This document shows, in pieces, positions 11,700-19,672 of a stretch of DNA of 64,000 bases. Below the pieces are notes generated by a model. That model was given only the letters and a program-made list of their open reading frames with translations, searched no databases and was not told the origin of the DNA. Every line of letters starts with the position of its first letter. Position 1 is the stretch's first letter. The stretch is taken from assembly GCA_958296125.1 (NCBI GenBank), contig OY282444.1:4311623-4375622 (forward strand). Direction: 5' to 3'. Made by a program: the position numbers and the translations under genes. The stretch is from an uncultured Poribacteria bacterium. GTDB lineage: Bacteria > Poribacteria > WGA-4E > PCPOR2b.

Positions 11700-12458
11700 T
11701 TAACGGTGTTCTTCTGCCGCATCTTGTGGCTCAAACCCGACCACCTCACGGGCGTGTGAAAAGTCGCGATAACTCCATTTGTTATCCGACACTGCGAAGA
11801 AGATAGCGAACCGCACGCTGTCGGGTGCCTCGATGCACTTTTCGACCATCTGTGCGATGTCTCGATGGCTGCACCAGACGGAGAACATACGCGGCTGTGT
11901 TGGACGGTTCTCACGGGTGACTGCACCAATGCGTAGGCAGATCATTGAGATGTCGCAGGTGTCTGAATAATGTCTCGCTAACGCTTCGCCGAATACCTTG
12001 GTGCACCCATAGAGTCCACTGGGTCGGGTCAGGGATTGGTGGTCTAGCTTATCCCACGTTTCGGGGACCTCATCGTAACGGCCTTCAGTGAGCGCACCGT
12101 AAGGAAACTCCCGCTCACAGTTGCTGACGGTTGAGCCGCTGCTAGCGTAGATAACCCGCTTAACACCCGCCCGCCGTGCCGCTTCAAAAACATTGTAGGT
12201 TCCAACGATATTGGGACTCAAGAGCTCTTCCCACGTTGCGCCGCCTCGTGCATTTGCTGCGAGATGCACAACCACGTCGACTCCCTCAAAAGCGGGTTGT
12301 ATCGCATTGAGGTCAGCGATATCCGCTTGATGGCATTCGATTCCTGCGACCGGGCTGCGATTGAGTGCGCTCAAAGCGTAGGTTCCTTCCAAACGCTCTC
12401 GCACGATGCCGCCGATCAATCCGCTCATACCTGTGATGAGTAGTTTCTTTTCTGCCAT
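11700..12458 (-). CDS. NAD-dependent epimerase/dehydratase (extended SDR)
   Basis: 252-residue nucleotide-sugar-epimerase-like protein. ATG 12458 is preceded by AAGGAGACA; 13 codons upstream in the frame lack such a site. The N-terminus has the Rossmann motif TGMSGLIGG, the second strand carries HQADIAD, the sheet has VVHLAANARG, and the Tyr-x3-Lys pair is in GLYGCTK. Length is short for a sugar epimerase (about 310), which fits the smaller uronate-dehydrogenase-like branch; that assignment is inference. It is first in a minus-strand set of three genes with two PhyH proteins. Confidence 0.88.
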   Translation of the reverse strand: MAEKKLLITGMSGLIGGIVRERLEGTYALSALNRSPVAGIECHQADIADLNAIQPAFEGVDVVVHLAANARGGATWEELLSPNIVGTYNVFEAARRAGVKRVIYASSGSTVSNCEREFPYGALTEGRYDEVPETWDKLDHQSLTRPSGLYGCTKVFGEALARHYSDTCDISMICLRIGAVTRENRPTQPRMFSVWCSHRDIAQMVEKCIEAPDSVRFAIFFAVSDNKWSYRDFSHAREVVGFEPQDAAEEHR

Positions 12459-12551
12459 ATTTGTCTCCTTTTTACACATGATTTGCATATTATACATTAT
12501 ATGCCGTGCGTTAGCAAAAAATTCCTCCTTAGGGAAGTGGCTAAAATTGTC

Positions 12552-12580
12552 TTGACACGGCTTCTGTTTTCCTCTATACT
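12552..12580 (+). promoter_or_regulatory. Sigma70-type promoter upstream of the ThuA gene
   Basis: TTGACA (12552-12557) and TATACT (12575-12580) with a 17-base spacer, facing the ThuA-like gene and leaving a leader of about 77 bases. The divergent gap also serves the epimerase gene. Confidence 0.78.
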
Positions 12581-12663
12581 GACAGCAGGCTTAATATCAC
12601 TGCGCGTGACAAACGAGCGCGGAAGCGTAACAACAATTAGAAAGAATAGAGGAGGCATCCACA

Positions 12664-13308
12664 TTGAAAGTTTTAGTTCTATCGGGTCCAAATCATCGGT
12701 TTGCGGATAGCGCGTCCGTCATCCACGATTTCCTTGCGGCACGAGGCGATATGTCGGCGGAACTTACCGATGACAAAGGGGTTTTGGCATCATCTCAACT
12801 GAACGAATTTGATGTCTGTGTGTTCGGCACCGGGTTTACTCGCACCGTCAGTCAGCCTGACGGCACCCCCAAGCGGGAACCGGACCTCACGGCTGAGCAG
12901 GAAGATGGGCTCTTTCAATTCGTCAGCGGCGGAAAGGGACTGGTCGGCATTCACGGAACAGCGTGGTGGATTGGGGGTCGCGCCGTTGACCTCATCGGTG
13001 GACACGCCAACTGGCATCCACCGGGGGGGACTTTCACAGTGAATATCGACGACTCAGATCACCCGATTACACAGGGCGTTGAGGCGTTTGAGGTCGAGGA
13101 CGAAATCTATATGTCCGCTTATGACCCCTACATCCATATCCTCGCGTCGGCGGAGTGGTCGGAGAAACAACACCCAATGGCGTGGGTGAAATCCTATGGC
13201 GATGGACGGGTGTTTTACACATCACTGGGTCACGGGCCCGGCACATTTGAGCAACCTGCCATGCAGCAGCTGGTTGGGCAGGGGATTCAATGGGCGGCAA
13301 ATGGTTAA
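12664..13308 (+). CDS. ThuA domain-containing protein
   Basis: 214-residue protein of the ThuA family, a glutamine-amidotransferase-like fold linked to sugar utilisation. The start is TTG 12664 behind a strong AGAGGAGG site. Family features include the N-terminal strand KVLVLSGPNHRF, the segment GLVGIHGTAWWIGG and the late motifs HPITQGV and GDGRVFYTSLGHGPGTF. No classical nucleophilic Cys elbow is visible, as is usual in ThuA proteins, so catalysis is uncertain. The next gene on the strand is a PhyH dioxygenase, and Gfo/Idh/MocA and sialidase-like genes follow, which fits sugar catabolism. Confidence 0.9.
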   Translation: MKVLVLSGPNHRFADSASVIHDFLAARGDMSAELTDDKGVLASSQLNEFDVCVFGTGFTRTVSQPDGTPKREPDLTAEQEDGLFQFVSGGKGLVGIHGTAWWIGGRAVDLIGGHANWHPPGGTFTVNIDDSDHPITQGVEAFEVEDEIYMSAYDPYIHILASAEWSEKQHPMAWVKSYGDGRVFYTSLGHGPGTFEQPAMQQLVGQGIQWAANG

Positions 13309-13321
13309 TTGCCGATCAGGG

Positions 13322-13354
13322 TTGAGCAGGGTTCTTTGGATGTATTCTGCTCAA
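13322..13354. promoter_or_regulatory. Perfect 8-base inverted repeat between thuA-like and PhyH genes
   Basis: TTGAGCAG (13322-13329) and CTGCTCAA (13347-13354) flank 17 bases. No T-run follows, so it is not a classical terminator; it may be an operator or RNA stem. Function unknown. Confidence 0.35.
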
Positions 13355-13403
13355 TTCTGCGAATCTTTTAATCCTGATAACAGACAAGGGAGACTGGTGG
13401 ACG

Positions 13404-14195
13404 ATGACCGAAGACGAAAGGTATCTATTTGATCTGACAGGTTATCTTGTGATTAAAGATGTGCTCACCGCTGAAGAGGTTGAGCGTTGTAACGCAGCAG
13501 TTGACCACCATATTGACGAACTCAGGGAGATGGACAGGTCGCTGGCGGGCGGTTCAAAAACGTTGTCAGGCACGTCCCGCCGGCGGGATTTGGGCGGGAT
13601 GCTGGCGTGGGAACACCCGTGGTGCGAACCGTTTCGGCAGTTCCTTGTTCACCCCCGAATTAAGCCTTACCTCGACGGGATATTGGGGGAAGGCTATCGG
13701 CTTGACCACGGACCGGGGATGATTGCGATGGAACCAGGCGCGGAAGGCGGCACGTTGCACGGCGGCGGTATTGAGCGCCCGAACTTTTCCGAAGCCTACT
13801 TCTTCAAAGATGGACGTATCTATACCGGACTCACAGTCGTCGAATATATGCTTGCGGACGAGGGCCCTGGAGATGGCGGGTTAGCGGTCATTCCGGGCAG
13901 TCATAAGGCAAACCTTCCCTGCCCTCAAAGTATGAAATTGTGGGAGAAATATCAGGAGCATGTGGTCGAAGTCCATGCGGAAACGGGCGATGCGATTATC
14001 TTCAGTGAAACCTTGACCCATGGGACTTTGCCGTGGAAAGCTGAGCATCAGCGGCGGGCAGTGCTTTATAAATTCAGCCCCGGATTTCAGGCATACAGCG
14101 CAGGAGCGCATCAAATTTCCTATCCCGATTATATTGAAGATATGACACCGGAGCAGCGTGCAGTCATGGAGGCACCTCACATCCGGCGGCGGTAG
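13404..14195 (+). CDS. PhyH-family protein lacking the HxD carboxylate
   Basis: 263-residue PhyH-like protein; ATG 13404 follows AAGGGAGACTGG. The PhyH core is clear (GLAVIPGSHKANLP; distal His206 in TLTHGTLPW followed by QRRAVLYKF). At the first ligand position the sequence is LHGGG (His119-Gly120-Gly121) instead of His-x-Asp. As I recall the family, the LHGGG signature is shared by a PhyH subgroup in planctomycete-like genomes. The missing carboxylate resembles the His-x-Gly/Ala of 2-oxoglutarate halogenases, but a nearby Glu (IERP) could substitute. It follows the ThuA gene with a 95-base gap. Confidence 0.88.
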   Translation: MTEDERYLFDLTGYLVIKDVLTAEEVERCNAAVDHHIDELREMDRSLAGGSKTLSGTSRRRDLGGMLAWEHPWCEPFRQFLVHPRIKPYLDGILGEGYRLDHGPGMIAMEPGAEGGTLHGGGIERPNFSEAYFFKDGRIYTGLTVVEYMLADEGPGDGGLAVIPGSHKANLPCPQSMKLWEKYQEHVVEVHAETGDAIIFSETLTHGTLPWKAEHQRRAVLYKFSPGFQAYSAGAHQISYPDYIEDMTPEQRAVMEAPHIRRR

Positions 14196-14283
14196 AAATG
14201 TCAGAATTGGCATTGTATCTCACAGATGACCCCGGTTGGTTTTTTGGACGAATGAAAGAAACTAAAAACAATCCCAATGCTTG

Positions 14284-14321
14284 CCTGGTCTGTCCGTGCC
14301 GAGACCAGGCGGAACGGACAG
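14284..14321. repeat. Palindromic copy of the 18-base repeat upstream of tnpB
   Basis: The unit TCCGTGCCGAGACCAGG (14293-14309) lies inside two overlapping inverted repeats: CCTGGTC (14284-14290) with GACCAGG (14303-14309), and CTGTCCGTGCCG (14290-14301) with CGGAACGGACAG (14310-14321, one mismatch). The second arm is a reverse-complement half unit, so this is the most complete palindromic form in the window. Confidence 0.65.
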
Positions 14322-14358
14322 CGTTGGGGCTAACCCTGTAATTTTACTTTTCAAAAGC

Positions 14359-15594
14359 ATGTCTAACGCATATCGCACGTATATCATAAGCACGTCGCCG
14401 AAAACACCCGAGTTAGATGCCATCAATCAATTAGGGGGTCGCATCTATTCCAAGACGATATCTGTCATCCGTAAAGTGCATGATAGGAAAGACTTCTGGC
14501 TTTCGGTCGGCAGCACCAAAAAGTATCTACGATGTTTAGAATATCCATGTCATTCGCATAGCGTCCAAGCGATTATTGATGATTATTATGGTGCGCTCAA
14601 GTCTTACTTTCAACGAATGCGGAAAGACCCTAAAGCGAGACCTCCTTATCGGACATCTAAATACCACACTTTCACATGGCGAGCGTCTGGTATTACCGTG
14701 TCTGGCAACAGACTAAGACTTTCAATGGGCAAAGGTAGAGAGCCCGTCTATATCAAAGTATCACGCAAGTTTCGTAAGGTCCCCGTTGAGGTCTCGATGG
14801 TCTACAACCGTATCAGTCAGATTTTTGAGTTTCACGCAACTTACCAGACACAGCCGACGCAACATAAGCCCAAGCAACGCAAAACAGTTGCTGTAGACCA
14901 AGGCGAGATTCACCCCATCGTGGCCTTCGACAGTGAGTCTGCTACGATTTACAATGGGCGTTCTATCCGTGCAATCAAACAATATCGCAATAAGTTTGTA
15001 GCACGGATTAATCAGAAACTTTCAAGATGTAAGCGATACAGTCAACGCTGGAAGTTTCTAAAATCGGCTAAGAATCGTGTCTTAAAGAAGTTAGCCAACC
15101 AGATTCGGGATGCAGAACACAAAATCACGTCCCGCTTTGTCTCCGCTTGTCGAGTCTTCAAAGCGCAGACGATTGTTTTAGGAGATTTAACCGATATCCG
15201 ACAAAGAATCAACTATAGTAAGAAGTCCAATCAGAAATTGCACCAATGGTCTTTTGGTAAAATCGCCGCTATGATAACCTACAAAGCCAAGGCTGTCGGT
15301 ATCATTGTGGACAAAGAATCAGAGCGATATACCAGCCAAACCTGCCCGTCCTGCCGCAACCGTAAGAAACCTACGGGTCGTGTCTATTCATGCCCCAAAT
15401 GTGGATGGGAAGGCCATCGAGACGTTGTCGGTGCAAGTAATATCTGGACAAAGTATCAGGGTTGGATGTTCAACCCTGTAGTGGGCGGTGTGGCATCGCC
15501 CGTAGGTGTGAGATTTAATGCACATCTATGTCGCTTAGACGCGTGGTCGCCCTTTCGGGGACTCATATCTAAGAAGCCTGTCAACAACAGGTAA
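14359..15594 (+). CDS. tnpB: TnpB (IS200/IS605 OrfB) RNA-guided nuclease with altered RuvC-II
   Basis: 411-residue TnpB protein, the transposon-encoded nuclease ancestral to Cas12. ATG 14359 is preferred over a frame extension that runs into the upstream palindrome. RuvC-I Asp180 is in VAVDQGEIHP and RuvC-III Asp355 in HRDVVGASN; a zinc finger lies between them (CPSC...CPKC). RuvC-II reads IVLGDLTDIR, with Gly275 where canonical TnpB has Glu; Glu322 just before RYTSQTC may replace it, as in TnpB groups with a rearranged catalytic site. No TnpA transposase is present, so this is a TnpB-only element. Sequences past the stop form the right end and probable omega-RNA. Confidence 0.92.
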   Translation: MSNAYRTYIISTSPKTPELDAINQLGGRIYSKTISVIRKVHDRKDFWLSVGSTKKYLRCLEYPCHSHSVQAIIDDYYGALKSYFQRMRKDPKARPPYRTSKYHTFTWRASGITVSGNRLRLSMGKGREPVYIKVSRKFRKVPVEVSMVYNRISQIFEFHATYQTQPTQHKPKQRKTVAVDQGEIHPIVAFDSESATIYNGRSIRAIKQYRNKFVARINQKLSRCKRYSQRWKFLKSAKNRVLKKLANQIRDAEHKITSRFVSACRVFKAQTIVLGDLTDIRQRINYSKKSNQKLHQWSFGKIAAMITYKAKAVGIIVDKESERYTSQTCPSCRNRKKPTGRVYSCPKCGWEGHRDVVGASNIWTKYQGWMFNPVVGGVASPVGVRFNAHLCRLDAWSPFRGLISKKPVNNR

Positions 15595-15625
15595 GAAGCC
15601 CAAGCATTTATGCTTGGGAGTATGT
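15483..15625 (+). ncRNA. Probable omega-RNA (reRNA) overlapping the tnpB 3' end
   Basis: Four hairpins follow one another: GGGCG...CGCCC (15483-15501), GTCGCCC TTTC GGGGAC (15546-15562), CCTGT CAACA ACAGG (15577-15591) and CCCAAGC ATTTAT GCTTGGG (15599-15618). They end in GGGAGTATGTCA at the transposon right end. Overlap of tnpB with a structured RNA running to the right end is the known arrangement for omega-RNAs; the guide would be the bases after about 15625. Structure and boundaries are inferred by eye. Confidence 0.55.
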
Positions 15626-15627
15626 CA
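15616..15627 (+). repeat. IS200/IS605-type right-end motif
   Basis: GGGAGTATGTCA directly after a 7-base-stem hairpin marks the right end of the tnpB element. The same 12 bases recur at 42580, and in reverse complement at 54198 and 63939. Confidence 0.7.
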
Positions 15628-15724
15628 CCACACGGCGTTCGTCAATCAGTTATCGAAACCCTGAAAGCAGGCAGGATGGAAACAGATCCCATCCATCAAA
15701 CCGTAGAAAGGAGCTTGGAAACCC

Positions 15725-17050
15725 ATGAGCAACGTTCCCATGACACGCCCCGAAGAGGCATTGGCGATTCATGAAACGAGATATTTCCACTCGTCTACCT
15801 TTACAGAACTTGAGGATGGATGCATACTACACGCTGCTGGAACGCAGTTCAACACCTCCGATGATGGCGGGATCACATGGTCTGAGTCGTTCTCACGCAC
15901 TGACACGGCGGGAGATCCGGTGGGCGGCGGTGGAACATCGCTCGTGCAGTTGTCCGGTGACGGCATCGGCTTGGCAGCCATGCACAGACCCTCTGACGGT
16001 TCTTCCGAGAGCGTTCGGCGGGACACGCATTTGGTTTTCTGGCGGTCAATGGACGGTGGAGAGACTTGGGAGCCGCCAGTCCGCATAACGCCGCCGGGGA
16101 TCGCCACCTATGCCTATCAAGATGTCCTGCTCCGCACCTCCTCTGGGCGCATTATCCTGCCGGTGTATATCGCGCTGGGGCAGTCCACGGGCCCGAATGA
16201 CATCAAACCGCCTGCGTCTGGAAAATTGGTGAATAATCAGTGGGTGTCTACCGCTGCCCACTTTTTTGACCCCCGTTTCTCTGCGTCCTACGTCTGTTAT
16301 TCGGACGACGATGGACGGACGTGGCAGCGCAATCGGGATGGGGAACTGATTATCCTGATGGACTGGAACGCATCGTTCAGCTATACCAACGAGCCGACAG
16401 TGACGGAAGTGGAGCCGGGACGGCTGCTGATGTTCATGCGTAATGGATTGGGTCGCGTTTTTCAGGCGTGGTCAGAGGACGACGGGGAGACATGGACGCG
16501 CCCCCAACCGACCTCCTTGGCTTCATCGACAGCGCCCGCACAGATTCGGACCCTGCCCAACGGACACCTCCTAGCGGTCTGGAATCAGGAGGGTGAGGCC
16601 GAAATTAAACGGGGTTACAATCGGACGCGAATCTCCGCTGCAATTAGCCGTAATGGCGGCAGCGTGTGGGAGTTCTTCCAAAATGTGGAATCGATCCATG
16701 AGGAAACACGGGTTGAGCCGGGCCCGATTCGTCCAGTCCGGCCGGCAGAATACCACTTTGATCCGGGGCTACCGGCTCCAGAGCGGGAGCGAGAACATCT
16801 ATTGCCCTTCGATGTTCACGGACGTTGGTCGTATCCATCGGTGTTGGTGATGAAAGACCGCGTCCTCATTGCTCACACCTATTCGGTCTACGAGGAGCAC
16901 CCCACCCGCGCTGAGTTAATTCTAAGCAGCCGAAGGGAGGGCGGCTTCAATCAGAAGCTAAAGGTGCTGCCCCTGACGTGGTTCTACGGTGGGAAGGAGC
17001 CTGCGGACAACCCGGTGCTGGCGCGATTGCACGAGCCGGCGAAGCCGTGA
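15725..17050 (+). CDS. Sialidase-like (BNR/Asp-box) protein
   Basis: 441-residue six-bladed-propeller protein of the sialidase superfamily. Five Asp-box motifs (S-x-D-x-G-x-T-W type) are visible: SDDGGITW, SMDGGETW, SDDDGRTW, SEDDGETW and a weaker SRNGGSVW. No secretion signal is evident at the N-terminus (MSNVPMTRPEEALA), so a cytoplasmic role is possible. ATG 15725 has an AAAGGAG site. The Arg triad of true sialidases cannot be assigned safely, so the substrate is left open. It is followed on the same strand by a Gfo/Idh/MocA oxidoreductase. A decayed sialidase-like C-terminus lies at 21832-22050. Confidence 0.85.
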   Translation: MSNVPMTRPEEALAIHETRYFHSSTFTELEDGCILHAAGTQFNTSDDGGITWSESFSRTDTAGDPVGGGGTSLVQLSGDGIGLAAMHRPSDGSSESVRRDTHLVFWRSMDGGETWEPPVRITPPGIATYAYQDVLLRTSSGRIILPVYIALGQSTGPNDIKPPASGKLVNNQWVSTAAHFFDPRFSASYVCYSDDDGRTWQRNRDGELIILMDWNASFSYTNEPTVTEVEPGRLLMFMRNGLGRVFQAWSEDDGETWTRPQPTSLASSTAPAQIRTLPNGHLLAVWNQEGEAEIKRGYNRTRISAAISRNGGSVWEFFQNVESIHEETRVEPGPIRPVRPAEYHFDPGLPAPEREREHLLPFDVHGRWSYPSVLVMKDRVLIAHTYSVYEEHPTRAELILSSRREGGFNQKLKVLPLTWFYGGKEPADNPVLARLHEPAKP

Positions 17051-17115
17051 TGCTTGAAACGTGAAGCGCGAAGAGGTGAACTATTAGCAGTTTAGTGCTG
17101 TAGAGGAGATTATTG

Positions 17116-18117
17116 ATGTTAAAATTTGCTTATTTGGGTGCATGGCACAGCCACGCCAGCATGCACACCCGCGAGTCAACGGAGCGTCCTGAAGAATTTC
17201 AACCCATCGGATTTTACGATCCGGATCCAGAGGTCGTTGCGCGAAGAGAACAGGAGTGGTCCGAATCCTTTCCCGATCTCACCGTTTTTCCATCCGTCGA
17301 AGCGGTGTTGGACAGCGATGCTCAAGCGGTCATCGTCGAAGGGCATGTCTACCAGAATCTGGACTACGCGGAGCAGGCCCTTGAAGCGGGTAAACATGTG
17401 TTGCTCGAAAAACCGGCGGGCATCAATCTGGAACAGTTGAAGCGTATCCACAAACTCTCGGAGCACAAGGGACTGAGCCTTCAGATGGCGTATATGTGGC
17501 GTTACAATCCCGCGATTCACGAAATGCTGCGGCTCGCTAAATCGGGGGCGTTGGGCGATATTTTCTACTATCGCGGACACATTCCTAAGCCGATATCGTG
17601 GCATCCACAGTTGGTGCAGGAGTTCAAGGTGTATCACGGCGGGATTTACTTCGAGATGGCGGGGCATCTGATTGACCTGATGGTTATCCTGATGGGAGAA
17701 CCGAAACGGGTGCAGCCCTGCTTGGGACGGCACTACGCCAACCGATCTGAGGTGGATAATGCGGTGGTGGTCCATGAGTTTGGAGATGGGTTCGGGACGG
17801 TGGACACCGCCGGTATGCACATTGAGAGCGGCAAAACCCGTCGTATCGAAGTTTACGGCACGAAGGGAACTGCCATCCATACCCCAATTGGTTCGGATAA
17901 CCTTAGCCTGAGTTTGGAAACGGCTGTTGAAGGCTACGCAGCGGGTTCGCAGGAAGTGACTATTACTCGGTCGTCAACCTCTTCATCGCTGCTGCGAGAA
18001 CTCACTGCCTGCATTCGAGGGGAAAAACAGCCGGATTACACACCGGCGCATGACATGGCTGTGCAGCGGACACTGTTTGCCGGTTGCGGCGTAACGGATG
18101 GGGTCGCCCTTCGATAA
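17116..18117 (+). CDS. Gfo/Idh/MocA family oxidoreductase
   Basis: 333-residue NAD(P)-dependent sugar or cyclitol dehydrogenase-like protein. ATG 17116 lies 7 bases after GAGGAG; the TTG at 17113 is less likely. The N-terminal Rossmann part starts at FAYLGAWHSHASMHTRES, an unusual nucleotide loop rich in His. The central motif EKPAGINLEQL holds the family's active-site Lys, and HLIDLMVILMGEP in the C-terminal half gives the catalytic His region. Neighbours (sialidase-like upstream, HAD dehalogenase downstream) suggest a catabolic operon. Confidence 0.92.
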   Translation: MLKFAYLGAWHSHASMHTRESTERPEEFQPIGFYDPDPEVVARREQEWSESFPDLTVFPSVEAVLDSDAQAVIVEGHVYQNLDYAEQALEAGKHVLLEKPAGINLEQLKRIHKLSEHKGLSLQMAYMWRYNPAIHEMLRLAKSGALGDIFYYRGHIPKPISWHPQLVQEFKVYHGGIYFEMAGHLIDLMVILMGEPKRVQPCLGRHYANRSEVDNAVVVHEFGDGFGTVDTAGMHIESGKTRRIEVYGTKGTAIHTPIGSDNLSLSLETAVEGYAAGSQEVTITRSSTSSSLLRELTACIRGEKQPDYTPAHDMAVQRTLFAGCGVTDGVALR

Positions 18118-18180
18118 GCGTGGATTTTCGGCAAACCGCCGCCCCAATCGAACAAACCTCGTTTGTCTGGAAAAAATTCT

Positions 18181-18912
18181 ATGAAAGCTAGCGAAAAAAC
18201 AGATGCCCTTGAGATTAAGGCACTGACATTTGATGTATTCGGCACGGTTGTAGACTGGCGCGGTAGCATTATCCGTGAAGGTGAAGCGTTTGGAGCGGCT
18301 CGCGGACTCGATGTGGATTGGGCGAGGTTTGCGGACCAATGGCGGGGCGGATACGGTCCCTCGATGAATCGCGTCCGTAAAGGTGAATTGCCATGGCTGA
18401 ACATAGATACCCTGCACCGTATGATTTTGGACGACCTACTTGACGAGTTCAAAATTACGGAGTTGAGCGAAGCGGAGAAAGACCACCTCAATCGCGTCTG
18501 GCATCGCCTCACCCCATGGCCCGATGCCACCAGCGGACTTCAGCGATTGCGTGAACGATTCATTGTTGCACCCCTTTCCAACGGCAACATCGCTTTGCTC
18601 ACCAATATGGCGAAACACGCCGGGCTGCCGTGGGACTGCATTCTGTCCTCAGAGTTGGCGAAACATTACAAACCGGATCCAGAGGTTTATCAAACCGCCG
18701 CCGACTTGCTGGGCCTTCCGCCGATCCAAGTGATGATGGTCGCCGCGCACCCCGGCGATTTGCTGGCTGCATCGGCTGTTGGATTTAAGACCGGATTTGT
18801 GCCTCGACCCGAGGAGTATGGGGATCAGCGCAATCGAGATTTAGAACCCGATGCCTTTTTTGATGTGGTGGCGAACGACTTTAATAATCTGGCAAGTCAG
18901 CTAGGAGCGTAG
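18181..18912 (+). CDS. HAD-type haloacid dehalogenase
   Basis: About 243 residues, type II 2-haloacid dehalogenase-like member of the HAD superfamily. Motif I is TFDVFGTVVDW, with the nucleophilic Asp in DVFGT; motif II is the Ser in PLSNGN; motif III is the Lys in KHYKPDPEVY; motif IV includes MMVAAHPGDL, where HPGDL fits the haloacid dehalogenase branch. ATG 18181 is chosen although no ribosome site is visible; a TTG at 18163 is the alternative. It ends 7 bases before the DUF429 gene, so the two are probably co-transcribed. Many HAD proteins of this type hydrolyse phosphate esters rather than halides. Confidence 0.88.
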   Translation: MKASEKTDALEIKALTFDVFGTVVDWRGSIIREGEAFGAARGLDVDWARFADQWRGGYGPSMNRVRKGELPWLNIDTLHRMILDDLLDEFKITELSEAEKDHLNRVWHRLTPWPDATSGLQRLRERFIVAPLSNGNIALLTNMAKHAGLPWDCILSSELAKHYKPDPEVYQTAADLLGLPPIQVMMVAAHPGDLLAASAVGFKTGFVPRPEEYGDQRNRDLEPDAFFDVVANDFNNLASQLGA

Positions 18913-18919
18913 GATTAAG

Positions 18920-19672
18920 ATGTTCGTTGGTGTAGATGGTTGCAGGGCGGGTTGGCTCGCCATTGGGCTGGAGACGGAGACTAACTGGCAGGTTAATATC
19001 TTTCCGGATGTGGCTAGTCTTTGGAATTATCATCGGCGGGGGTCCTTGATATTGATTGACATTCCTATCGGTTTGAAAGCGGAGGGTAGGGCTGAGCGTC
19101 GTTGTGACCCGGAAGCCCGGAAGTTGTTGGGACCTAGGCGTTCGAGCGTGTTTCCTGCACCGTGCCGTCAAGCAATCTATGCACTGTCATATCAGGATGC
19201 TTGTGATGTCAATCAACGGTTGACAGGCAAACGGTTGTCCGTTGAAAACTGGAATATTATCCCCAAGATTCGTGAGGTTGATTGCCTCCTTTCGGACGAC
19301 ACCTCCGCGACAGGTCGTATCAGAGAAATCCATCCGGAACTCTGCTTTTGGGGATTGGCGGGTCGTCCGATGCAACACGCCAAAAAGCGAAGTGAGGGAT
19401 TTTCGGAGCGAATGGAGCTCCTCCAGTCAATTTATCCGCAGACTGCCGATATTATCAGCCATATACTATCCACCTATAGGCGCGCAGATGTCGCAAGGGA
19501 CGACATCCTTGATGCACTGTCCGCCGCAGTGACCGGGATGATGGGGGGACGAAAGCTCGCGTCAATTCCGCAAGAACCTGAGTTTGATGAACGAGGCTTG
19601 CGGATGGAGATGGTATATTGCCCGCACACCGTGGGTGAAATCTCTATGGGACTTACGCAGCAGAACGTTTGA
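18920..19672 (+). CDS. DUF429 domain-containing protein
   Basis: 250 residues. The N-terminus FVGVDGCRAGWLAIGL and the segment LILIDIPIGL, followed by a basic ERRCDPEARKLLG stretch and SSVFPAPCRQAI, are the signatures of DUF429, a predicted RNase-H-fold family with unknown biological role. Conserved Asp residues in GVDGCR and IDIPIG and a late DDILDAL could form the metal site. ATG 18920 follows AGGA, 7 bases after the HAD gene. A link to nucleic acid or nucleotide metabolism is inference from the fold only. Confidence 0.88.
   Translation: MFVGVDGCRAGWLAIGLETETNWQVNIFPDVASLWNYHRRGSLILIDIPIGLKAEGRAERRCDPEARKLLGPRRSSVFPAPCRQAIYALSYQDACDVNQRLTGKRLSVENWNIIPKIREVDCLLSDDTSATGRIREIHPELCFWGLAGRPMQHAKKRSEGFSERMELLQSIYPQTADIISHILSTYRRADVARDDILDALSAAVTGMMGGRKLASIPQEPEFDERGLRMEMVYCPHTVGEISMGLTQQNV

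What the first reader, a model, noticed from the sequence alone, without database searches (positions are those of the whole stretch)
13404..14195. PhyH protein with LHGGG instead of the His-x-Asp metal motif
His119 is followed by Gly-Gly where the iron-binding Asp should be; the distal His206 and following Arg residues are kept. In 2-oxoglutarate halogenases the same loss leaves room for chloride. Alternatively the protein uses another carboxylate, or binds ligand without catalysis. A HAD-type dehalogenase is encoded 4 kb downstream, so halogen chemistry is an interesting but unproven idea.
Basis: partly seen in the sequence, partly recalled or inferred. Interest (0 to 1): 0.55.

Follow-up and report, generated by a model that had tools for sequence, protein, structure and literature searches.

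The report
Iron enzyme with relocated acid ligand
This gene, from what is probably a sponge-associated bacterium, encodes an iron oxygenase that lacks the usual aspartate next to its first metal-binding histidine; comparison with hundreds of relatives suggests that a glutamate elsewhere in the active site has taken over that job, so it is more likely an oxygenase related to the antibiotic enzyme HygX than a halogenase.

Summary
In detail: the 263-aa PhyH protein (13404-14195) reads L118-H119-G-G-G, with H206 and R217/R218 kept. HGGG and E124-R125 are fixed in 45 of 45 distinct orthologues. The halogenase reading is not supported.

In a tree of 337 distinct PhyH domains, 135 form one clade (support 97). 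In it His119, His206 and Arg217 are invariant, position H+2 is almost anything (G65 S47 A6 D6 P4 N3 Q2 T1 H1), and Glu sits four residues before the distal His (E202 here) in 129 of 135. In the 202 outside, H+2 is Asp in 200 and H-4 is acidic in 4. A separate subfamily (L239) shows the same double change, 6 of 6, against 28 of 28 HxD relatives. The closest solved structure is HygX (Foldseek E 7.9e-18, Z 24.7), crystallised with Fe, and with Ni and 2OG; it shares H-G-G, E, H and R.

Best reading: a working Fe/2OG oxygenase whose carboxylate ligand moved to E202, perhaps acting on a sugar-like substrate (a Gfo/Idh/MocA gene follows in 14 of 24 orthologue loci). E202-metal contact is inferred: no coordinates were available.

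The parts
13404..14195 (+). PhyH-domain protein P0001, 263 aa, predicted Fe/2OG oxygenase of the HygX-like clade
13755..13769 (+). L118-H119-G120-G121-G122: proximal metal His, with Gly where HxD has Asp
   Evidence: H119 invariant in 135 of 135 clade members
13773..13775 (+). E124 of the IERP stretch: fixed in the HGGG subfamily only, unlikely third ligand
   Evidence: 45 of 45 orthologues, 35 of 135 in the clade, loop 121-130 mean pLDDT 60
14007..14009 (+). E202, four residues before the distal His: proposed relocated carboxylate ligand
   Evidence: Glu in 129 of 135 clade members, acid at this position in 4 of 202 outside
14019..14021 (+). H206, distal metal His
   Evidence: 135 of 135 in the clade
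14052..14057 (+). R217 and R218; R217 at distal His +11 is the expected 2OG-binding Arg (recalled for PHYH)
   Evidence: R217 in 135 of 135; also R in 197 of 202 outside
12664..13308 (+). ThuA-like gene just upstream, conserved in the same-genus loci
   Evidence: Pfam ThuA 137.5 bits
15725..17050 (+). BNR/sialidase-like gene; directly downstream of P0001 in same-genus relatives
   Evidence: gap 41-66 bp in 8 of 8 same-genus-type loci
17113..18117 (+). Gfo/Idh/MocA oxidoreductase
   Evidence: Gfo/Idh/MocA gene downstream of the orthologue in 14 of 24 named loci

Best explanation
P0001 is a working Fe(II)/2-oxoglutarate oxygenase of the PhyH fold in which the facial triad has been rearranged. 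H119 and H206 hold the iron as usual, but the carboxylate at H+2 is gone and its role is taken by E202, in the short turn just before the distal His. R217 holds 2OG. The chemistry is then the ordinary cycle (ferryl, hydrogen abstraction, hydroxylation or ring closure), perhaps on a sugar-like or cyclitol-like substrate, as in its closest structural relative HygX. Shown here: the motif, its conservation, the nearly mutually exclusive distribution of the two acids, a second apparently independent double change, fold similarity with HygX, and recurrent Gfo/Idh/MocA neighbours. Inferred: direct E202-iron contact, activity, and substrate class (the substrate class alone about 0.4).
For: Own genome: of 155 countable PhyH ORFs (157 less 2 without an aligned His), 129 have an acid at H+2 only, 21 at H-4 only, 3 both, 2 neither. 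Wider set of 337: 197, 126, 9, 5. Clade of 135 against 202 outside, support 97. L239: same double change in 6 of 6 distinct orthologues, 28 of 28 other matching ORFs HxD without acid at H-4. HygX is the best match by sequence and by fold, has the same H-G-G, Glu at -4, His, Arg, and was crystallised with Fe, and with Ni and 2OG. In the model E202 sits in the turn between strand 197-201 and strand 206-209, which begins with H206. E202 is in all 126 distinct full-length matches at E 1e-60 (47 in the HGG..E group, 79 below 57% identity).
Against: No coordinates could be read, so no distance from E202 to the metal was measured. The tree-aware paired test is underpowered and not significant (median p 0.5, 1). 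The Fisher value of 1e-20 ignores relatedness. One subgroup (6 of 135) keeps both Glu at -4 and Asp at +2 (L004 type and L011), so E202 may have another role there. E124 is also fixed in the HGGG subfamily. 4 of 135 clade members have no acid at H-4. Swapped-ligand P4H variants (the His and Asp exchanged between positions) were inactive.
Confidence: 0.7

Rival explanations
1. Two-His dyad completed by water, as in human AspH: E202 is a conserved second-sphere residue that hydrogen-bonds the water or positions H206, and the enzyme still hydroxylates.
For: AspH has an HXG...H motif, binds metal with two His plus water and is a hydroxylase (PMC12816917, passages). Members with both D at +2 and E at -4 exist, so E202 need not be a ligand in each.
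Against: The near exclusive distribution of the two acids in 337 domains and the parallel L239 case are better explained by replacement than by an extra second-sphere residue.
Confidence: 0.16
2. Halogenase: chloride takes the vacant third site next to H119.
For: HxG is the motif recalled for WelO5 and BesD; SyrB2 has Ala there (PMC2767507, passages). SyrB2 and CytC3 are weak sequence relatives (E 1.2e-4 and 2.1e-3). A HAD type II gene lies 4 kb downstream.
Against: SyrB2 has Ser at the E202 position. H+2 in the clade includes Ser 47, Asp 6, Pro 4, Asn 3, Gln 2, His 1, which does not look like a kept halide pocket. The HAD gene is near only 3 of 24 orthologues. P4H D414A/G did not become a halogenase. 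The best fold match is HygX, an orthosomycin oxygenase.
Confidence: 0.05
3. E124 of the IER[P] stretch supplies the third ligand in this subfamily.
For: E124-R125 are identical in 45 of 45 orthologues.
Against: Only 35 of 135 clade members have Glu there and 56 have Pro, while E202 is kept; the loop is poorly defined in the model (mean pLDDT 60).
Confidence: 0.05
4. Non-catalytic PhyH protein that only binds a ligand.
For: The canonical carboxylate is lost; in P4H its loss (D414A, D414G) abolished activity.
Against: Both His and R217 are invariant in 135 of 135 and T208 in 45 of 45 orthologues. The nearest structure, HygX, was solved with Fe, and with Ni and 2OG.
Confidence: 0.04

Closest known systems
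HygX (hygromycin B biosynthesis, Streptomyces hygroscopicus; PDB 4xc9, 4xca, 4xcb, 4zpi)
   Same: Fold (Foldseek E 7.9e-18; Z 24.7, rmsd 2.6, 217 aligned), H102-G-G, Glu four residues before the distal His, Arg at +11, GSHKAN motif. I recall from the 2015 abstract that HygX shows a variation in metal coordination; the paper is not held.
   Different: 23-25% identity; a longer stretch after the proximal His in HygX (alignment); different organism and gene context; substrate of P0001 unknown.
Canonical PhyH oxygenases (human PHYH 2a1x, EctD, SptF, DhiD)
   Same: Fold and Pfam family; distal His and Arg; weaker sequence matches.
   Different: In the alignments PHYH, EctD and DhiD have Pro, Ser and Gly at the position of E202; they carry the acid at H+2 (recalled for the solved enzymes; measured here on 202 related ORFs).
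SyrB2 / CytC3 halogenases
   Same: Fold family, no acid at H+2 (SyrB2: passages); weak sequence match.
   Different: Ser, not Glu, before the distal His in SyrB2.
Human AspH
   Same: HXG...H motif in a hydroxylase (passages).
   Different: Two His plus water; no sequence or fold comparison with AspH was made here.

Membership tests
PhyH family (PF05721) | Pfam model score over cut-off | tested here: met
   55.5 bits against 22, residues 9-219
Canonical HxD...H facial triad | Asp or Glu at proximal His +2 | tested here: not met
   Gly121 in 45 of 45 orthologues
HygX-like oxygenases | Nearest fold and sequence match, H-x-G, Glu at -4, distal His, Arg at +11 | tested here: met
HygX-like oxygenases | Glu at -4 coordinates the metal | not testable with these tools
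   no coordinates available; HygX paper not held
HygX-like oxygenases | Forms an orthoester on an aminoglycoside | not testable with these tools
   needs assay; only sugar-type neighbours seen
Fe/2OG halogenases (SyrB2 type) | No acid at H+2 | tested here: met
Fe/2OG halogenases (SyrB2 type) | No competing acid at distal His -4 (my criterion, from SyrB2 alone) | tested here: not met
   E202; SyrB2 has Ser
Fe/2OG halogenases (SyrB2 type) | Halide bound to iron, halogenated product | not testable with these tools
   needs structure or assay
AspH-type two-His oxygenases | Only two protein ligands plus water | tested here: inconclusive
   The distribution of E202 argues against it, but coordination was not seen; AspH was not in the fold rows shown

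The most novel reading that the evidence does not exclude
A large branch of the PhyH superfamily, several genes per genome in Poribacteria and with relatives in records labelled Latescibacteria, Gemmatimonadetes, Chloroflexi and Armatimonadetes, has moved the iron's carboxylate ligand from proximal His +2 to the turn before the distal His. The move happened at least twice independently (the HygX-like clade and L239), and the freed H+2 position then diversified, which may open the site to bulky sugar substrates or to new rebound chemistry in some members.
Probability: 0.5. Interest if true: 0.6.

Novelty: new member of a known kind. Interest (0 to 1): 0.47.

Why it matters
HxG...H is often read as a halogenase signature in genome mining. 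Here is a large family in which that reading is probably wrong: checking distal His -4 for Glu separates it from SyrB2 in one step. If E202 is the ligand, the facial triad is not tied to one place in the barrel and has been rearranged by evolution more than once. That can be tested directly in existing HygX crystal structures and by swapping acids between the two positions.

Tried and rejected
Halogenase and IERP-Glu readings: considered and judged unlikely, as above. Viral contigs: 49 stretches matched a pattern, 0 encoded a relative. Rfam scan of 12000-19000: no match. The pattern search CAYGGNGGN in the genome gave 698 forward and 669 reverse hits, like its reversed control (653 and 672), so it says nothing. 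A first alignment was wrong because loci on the minus strand had not been reversed; it was redone and not used. The tree-aware independent-pairs test was not significant; only 4 supported pairs exist. In the own-genome tree L187 fell outside the clade, in the wider tree inside it, so it is not counted as an independent change. The C-terminal profile search of the PDB gave only weak hits (E above 1) and is used only for the SyrB2 alignment. Context beyond the genus differs: of 24 named orthologue loci, 7 with enough sequence have no Gfo/Idh/MocA match downstream on the same strand and 3 more end within 1.2 kb. AspH was not among the fold rows shown. Literature: a search for PhyH with HXG and metal ligand found 0 papers holding 4 of 5 terms; the HygX paper is not held, and brought up only papers that mention or cite it.

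In one search the names of fused two-domain ORFs collide, so 134 instead of 135 clade rows were counted there and a few rows show the other domain; the counts quoted for the clade come.

Full report
What is there. The ORF at 13404-14195 encodes a 263-aa PhyH-domain protein. The window lies in a 5.16 Mb single-contig genome. The genome has 151 matches to the PhyH model by the tool's count; a single-cell study of Poribacteria reports a remarkably high occurrence of such genes (PMC3909097, passages). The protein reads LHGGG at residues 118-122. H119, G120-G122, E124 and R125 are fixed in 45 of 45 distinct orthologues of at least 65% identity.

The missing acid is not simply lost. I took PhyH ORFs from the own genome (146 loci chosen from the matches) and aligned them with an iterated profile. 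Of 157 distinct ORFs with both positions aligned, 2 had no His at one of them and were dropped. Of 155, 129 carry an acid at proximal His +2 and none at distal His -4, 21 the reverse, 3 both, 2 neither. Adding ORFs from the relatives' loci held at that point and from the window gave 347 distinct domains; 7 partial and 3 without an aligned His were dropped; of 337 the counts are 197, 126, 9 and 5.

On a tree built without the trait columns, 135 domains including P0001 form one clade with support 97 (quick search, single-matrix model). In this clade H119, H206 and R217 are invariant, H+2 is G65 S47 A6 D6 P4 N3 Q2 T1 H1, and H-4 is E129 D2 S2 G1 A1. Outside, H+2 is D in 200 of 202 and H-4 is acidic in 4 of 202. 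Four columns are acidic in at least 94% of the clade: D10, D34, D152 and E202. D34 and D152 are common outside as well; D10 is largely clade-specific but lies in the N-terminal helix; E202 is the clade-specific one next to a metal ligand. E124 of the IERP stretch is present in 35 of 135.

A second, apparently independent case. L239 (own genome 2391335-2392147) lies outside the clade. Its six distinct orthologue sequences all read HGG with PETLWH or PESLWH. All 28 other distinct ORFs that match it at 1e-20 read HxD, and none has an acid at H-4. So the same double change seems to have occurred at least twice. The formal paired test cannot reach significance with so few changes.

Structure. AlphaFold2 on an alignment of 58 sequences (P0001 and 57 from named contigs) gave pLDDT 89.6, pTM 0.89. 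H119 ends strand 116-119. E202 follows strand 197-201, and H206 starts strand 206-209, so E202 sits in the turn before the distal His. The loop 121-130 has mean pLDDT 60. Foldseek and VIA-align both rank HygX first (E 7.9e-18; Z 24.7, rmsd 2.6, 217 aligned; the next family, SptF, has Z 22.0). HygX entries include Fe-bound and Ni/2OG/hygromycin-bound forms. HygX carries H-G-G, NEALMH with Glu at -4, and Arg at +11. I recall from the abstract of its 2015 paper that HygX shows a variation in metal coordination; the paper is not held, and I do not claim to have seen which residue is meant.

Function. In the 8 loci of same-genus type (L021-L025, L050-L052) ThuA precedes and BNR follows the orthologue, 8 of 8; the same genome may appear in both collections. 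Of 24 named orthologue loci, 3 have the window-type Gfo/Idh/MocA gene after BNR and 11 a different Gfo/Idh/MocA gene (Pfam-checked in 3 of them; the rest by similarity to it) 17-272 bp downstream, so 14 of 24; 7 have none downstream on the same strand and 3 end too soon. Together with HygX's aminoglycoside this points to a sugar-like substrate; it is only a lean.

Halogenation. SyrB2 aligns over the distal-His segment and has Ser where P0001 has E202 (a weak match with E 1.4). The variability of H+2 in the clade, the failed conversion of P4H by D414A and D414G (PMC2767507, abstract and passages) and the HXG...H hydroxylase AspH (PMC12816917, passages) all warn against reading HxG as halogenase. 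The HAD gene is near 3 of 24 orthologues only.

Verdict. A HygX-like oxygenase, probably active, with a probably relocated carboxylate ligand. The decisive measurement, the distance from E202 to the metal in HygX, needs coordinates that I could not read. For the protein itself I file it as a new member of a known kind; the claim of a family-wide and repeated ligand move is the novel case.

Noticed in passing
window 14281-15594 (+): TnpB/IS605-type ORF lies between P0001 and the BNR gene; in 8 of 8 same-genus-type loci that gap is only 41-66 bp without it, so it looks like a recent insertion splitting a gene row.
   Followed up: partly
L239 (own genome 2391335-2392147): Second PhyH subfamily with HGG at the proximal His and Glu at distal His -4, among HxD relatives.
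   Followed up: yes
L012/L019 (own genome 513041-517396): 523-aa ORF with two PhyH-like matches; one has HANG with ASAQTH (no acid at either position), the other lacks an aligned His pair in the profile alignment. Relatives in L061 and L065.
   Followed up: partly
L250 (own genome 2485434-2487179): PhyH ORF with HSH in place of HxD and no acid at H-4; possibly a three-His site or a misaligned motif.
   Followed up: no
L004, L109, L113, L114, L116: Members of the same clade that carry both Asp at H+2 (HGDG) and Glu at H-4.
   Followed up: no
L028 and L031 (second ORF), L155: HQD-type PhyH ORFs outside the clade with an acid at H-4 as well.
   Followed up: no
whole genome G000: 151 PhyH matches in 5.16 Mb by the tool's count.
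   Followed up: partly
window 13773-13778: E124-R125 after LHGGG are invariant in the HGGG subfamily (45 of 45) but not in the wider clade; perhaps a substrate or lid residue pair.
   Followed up: partly
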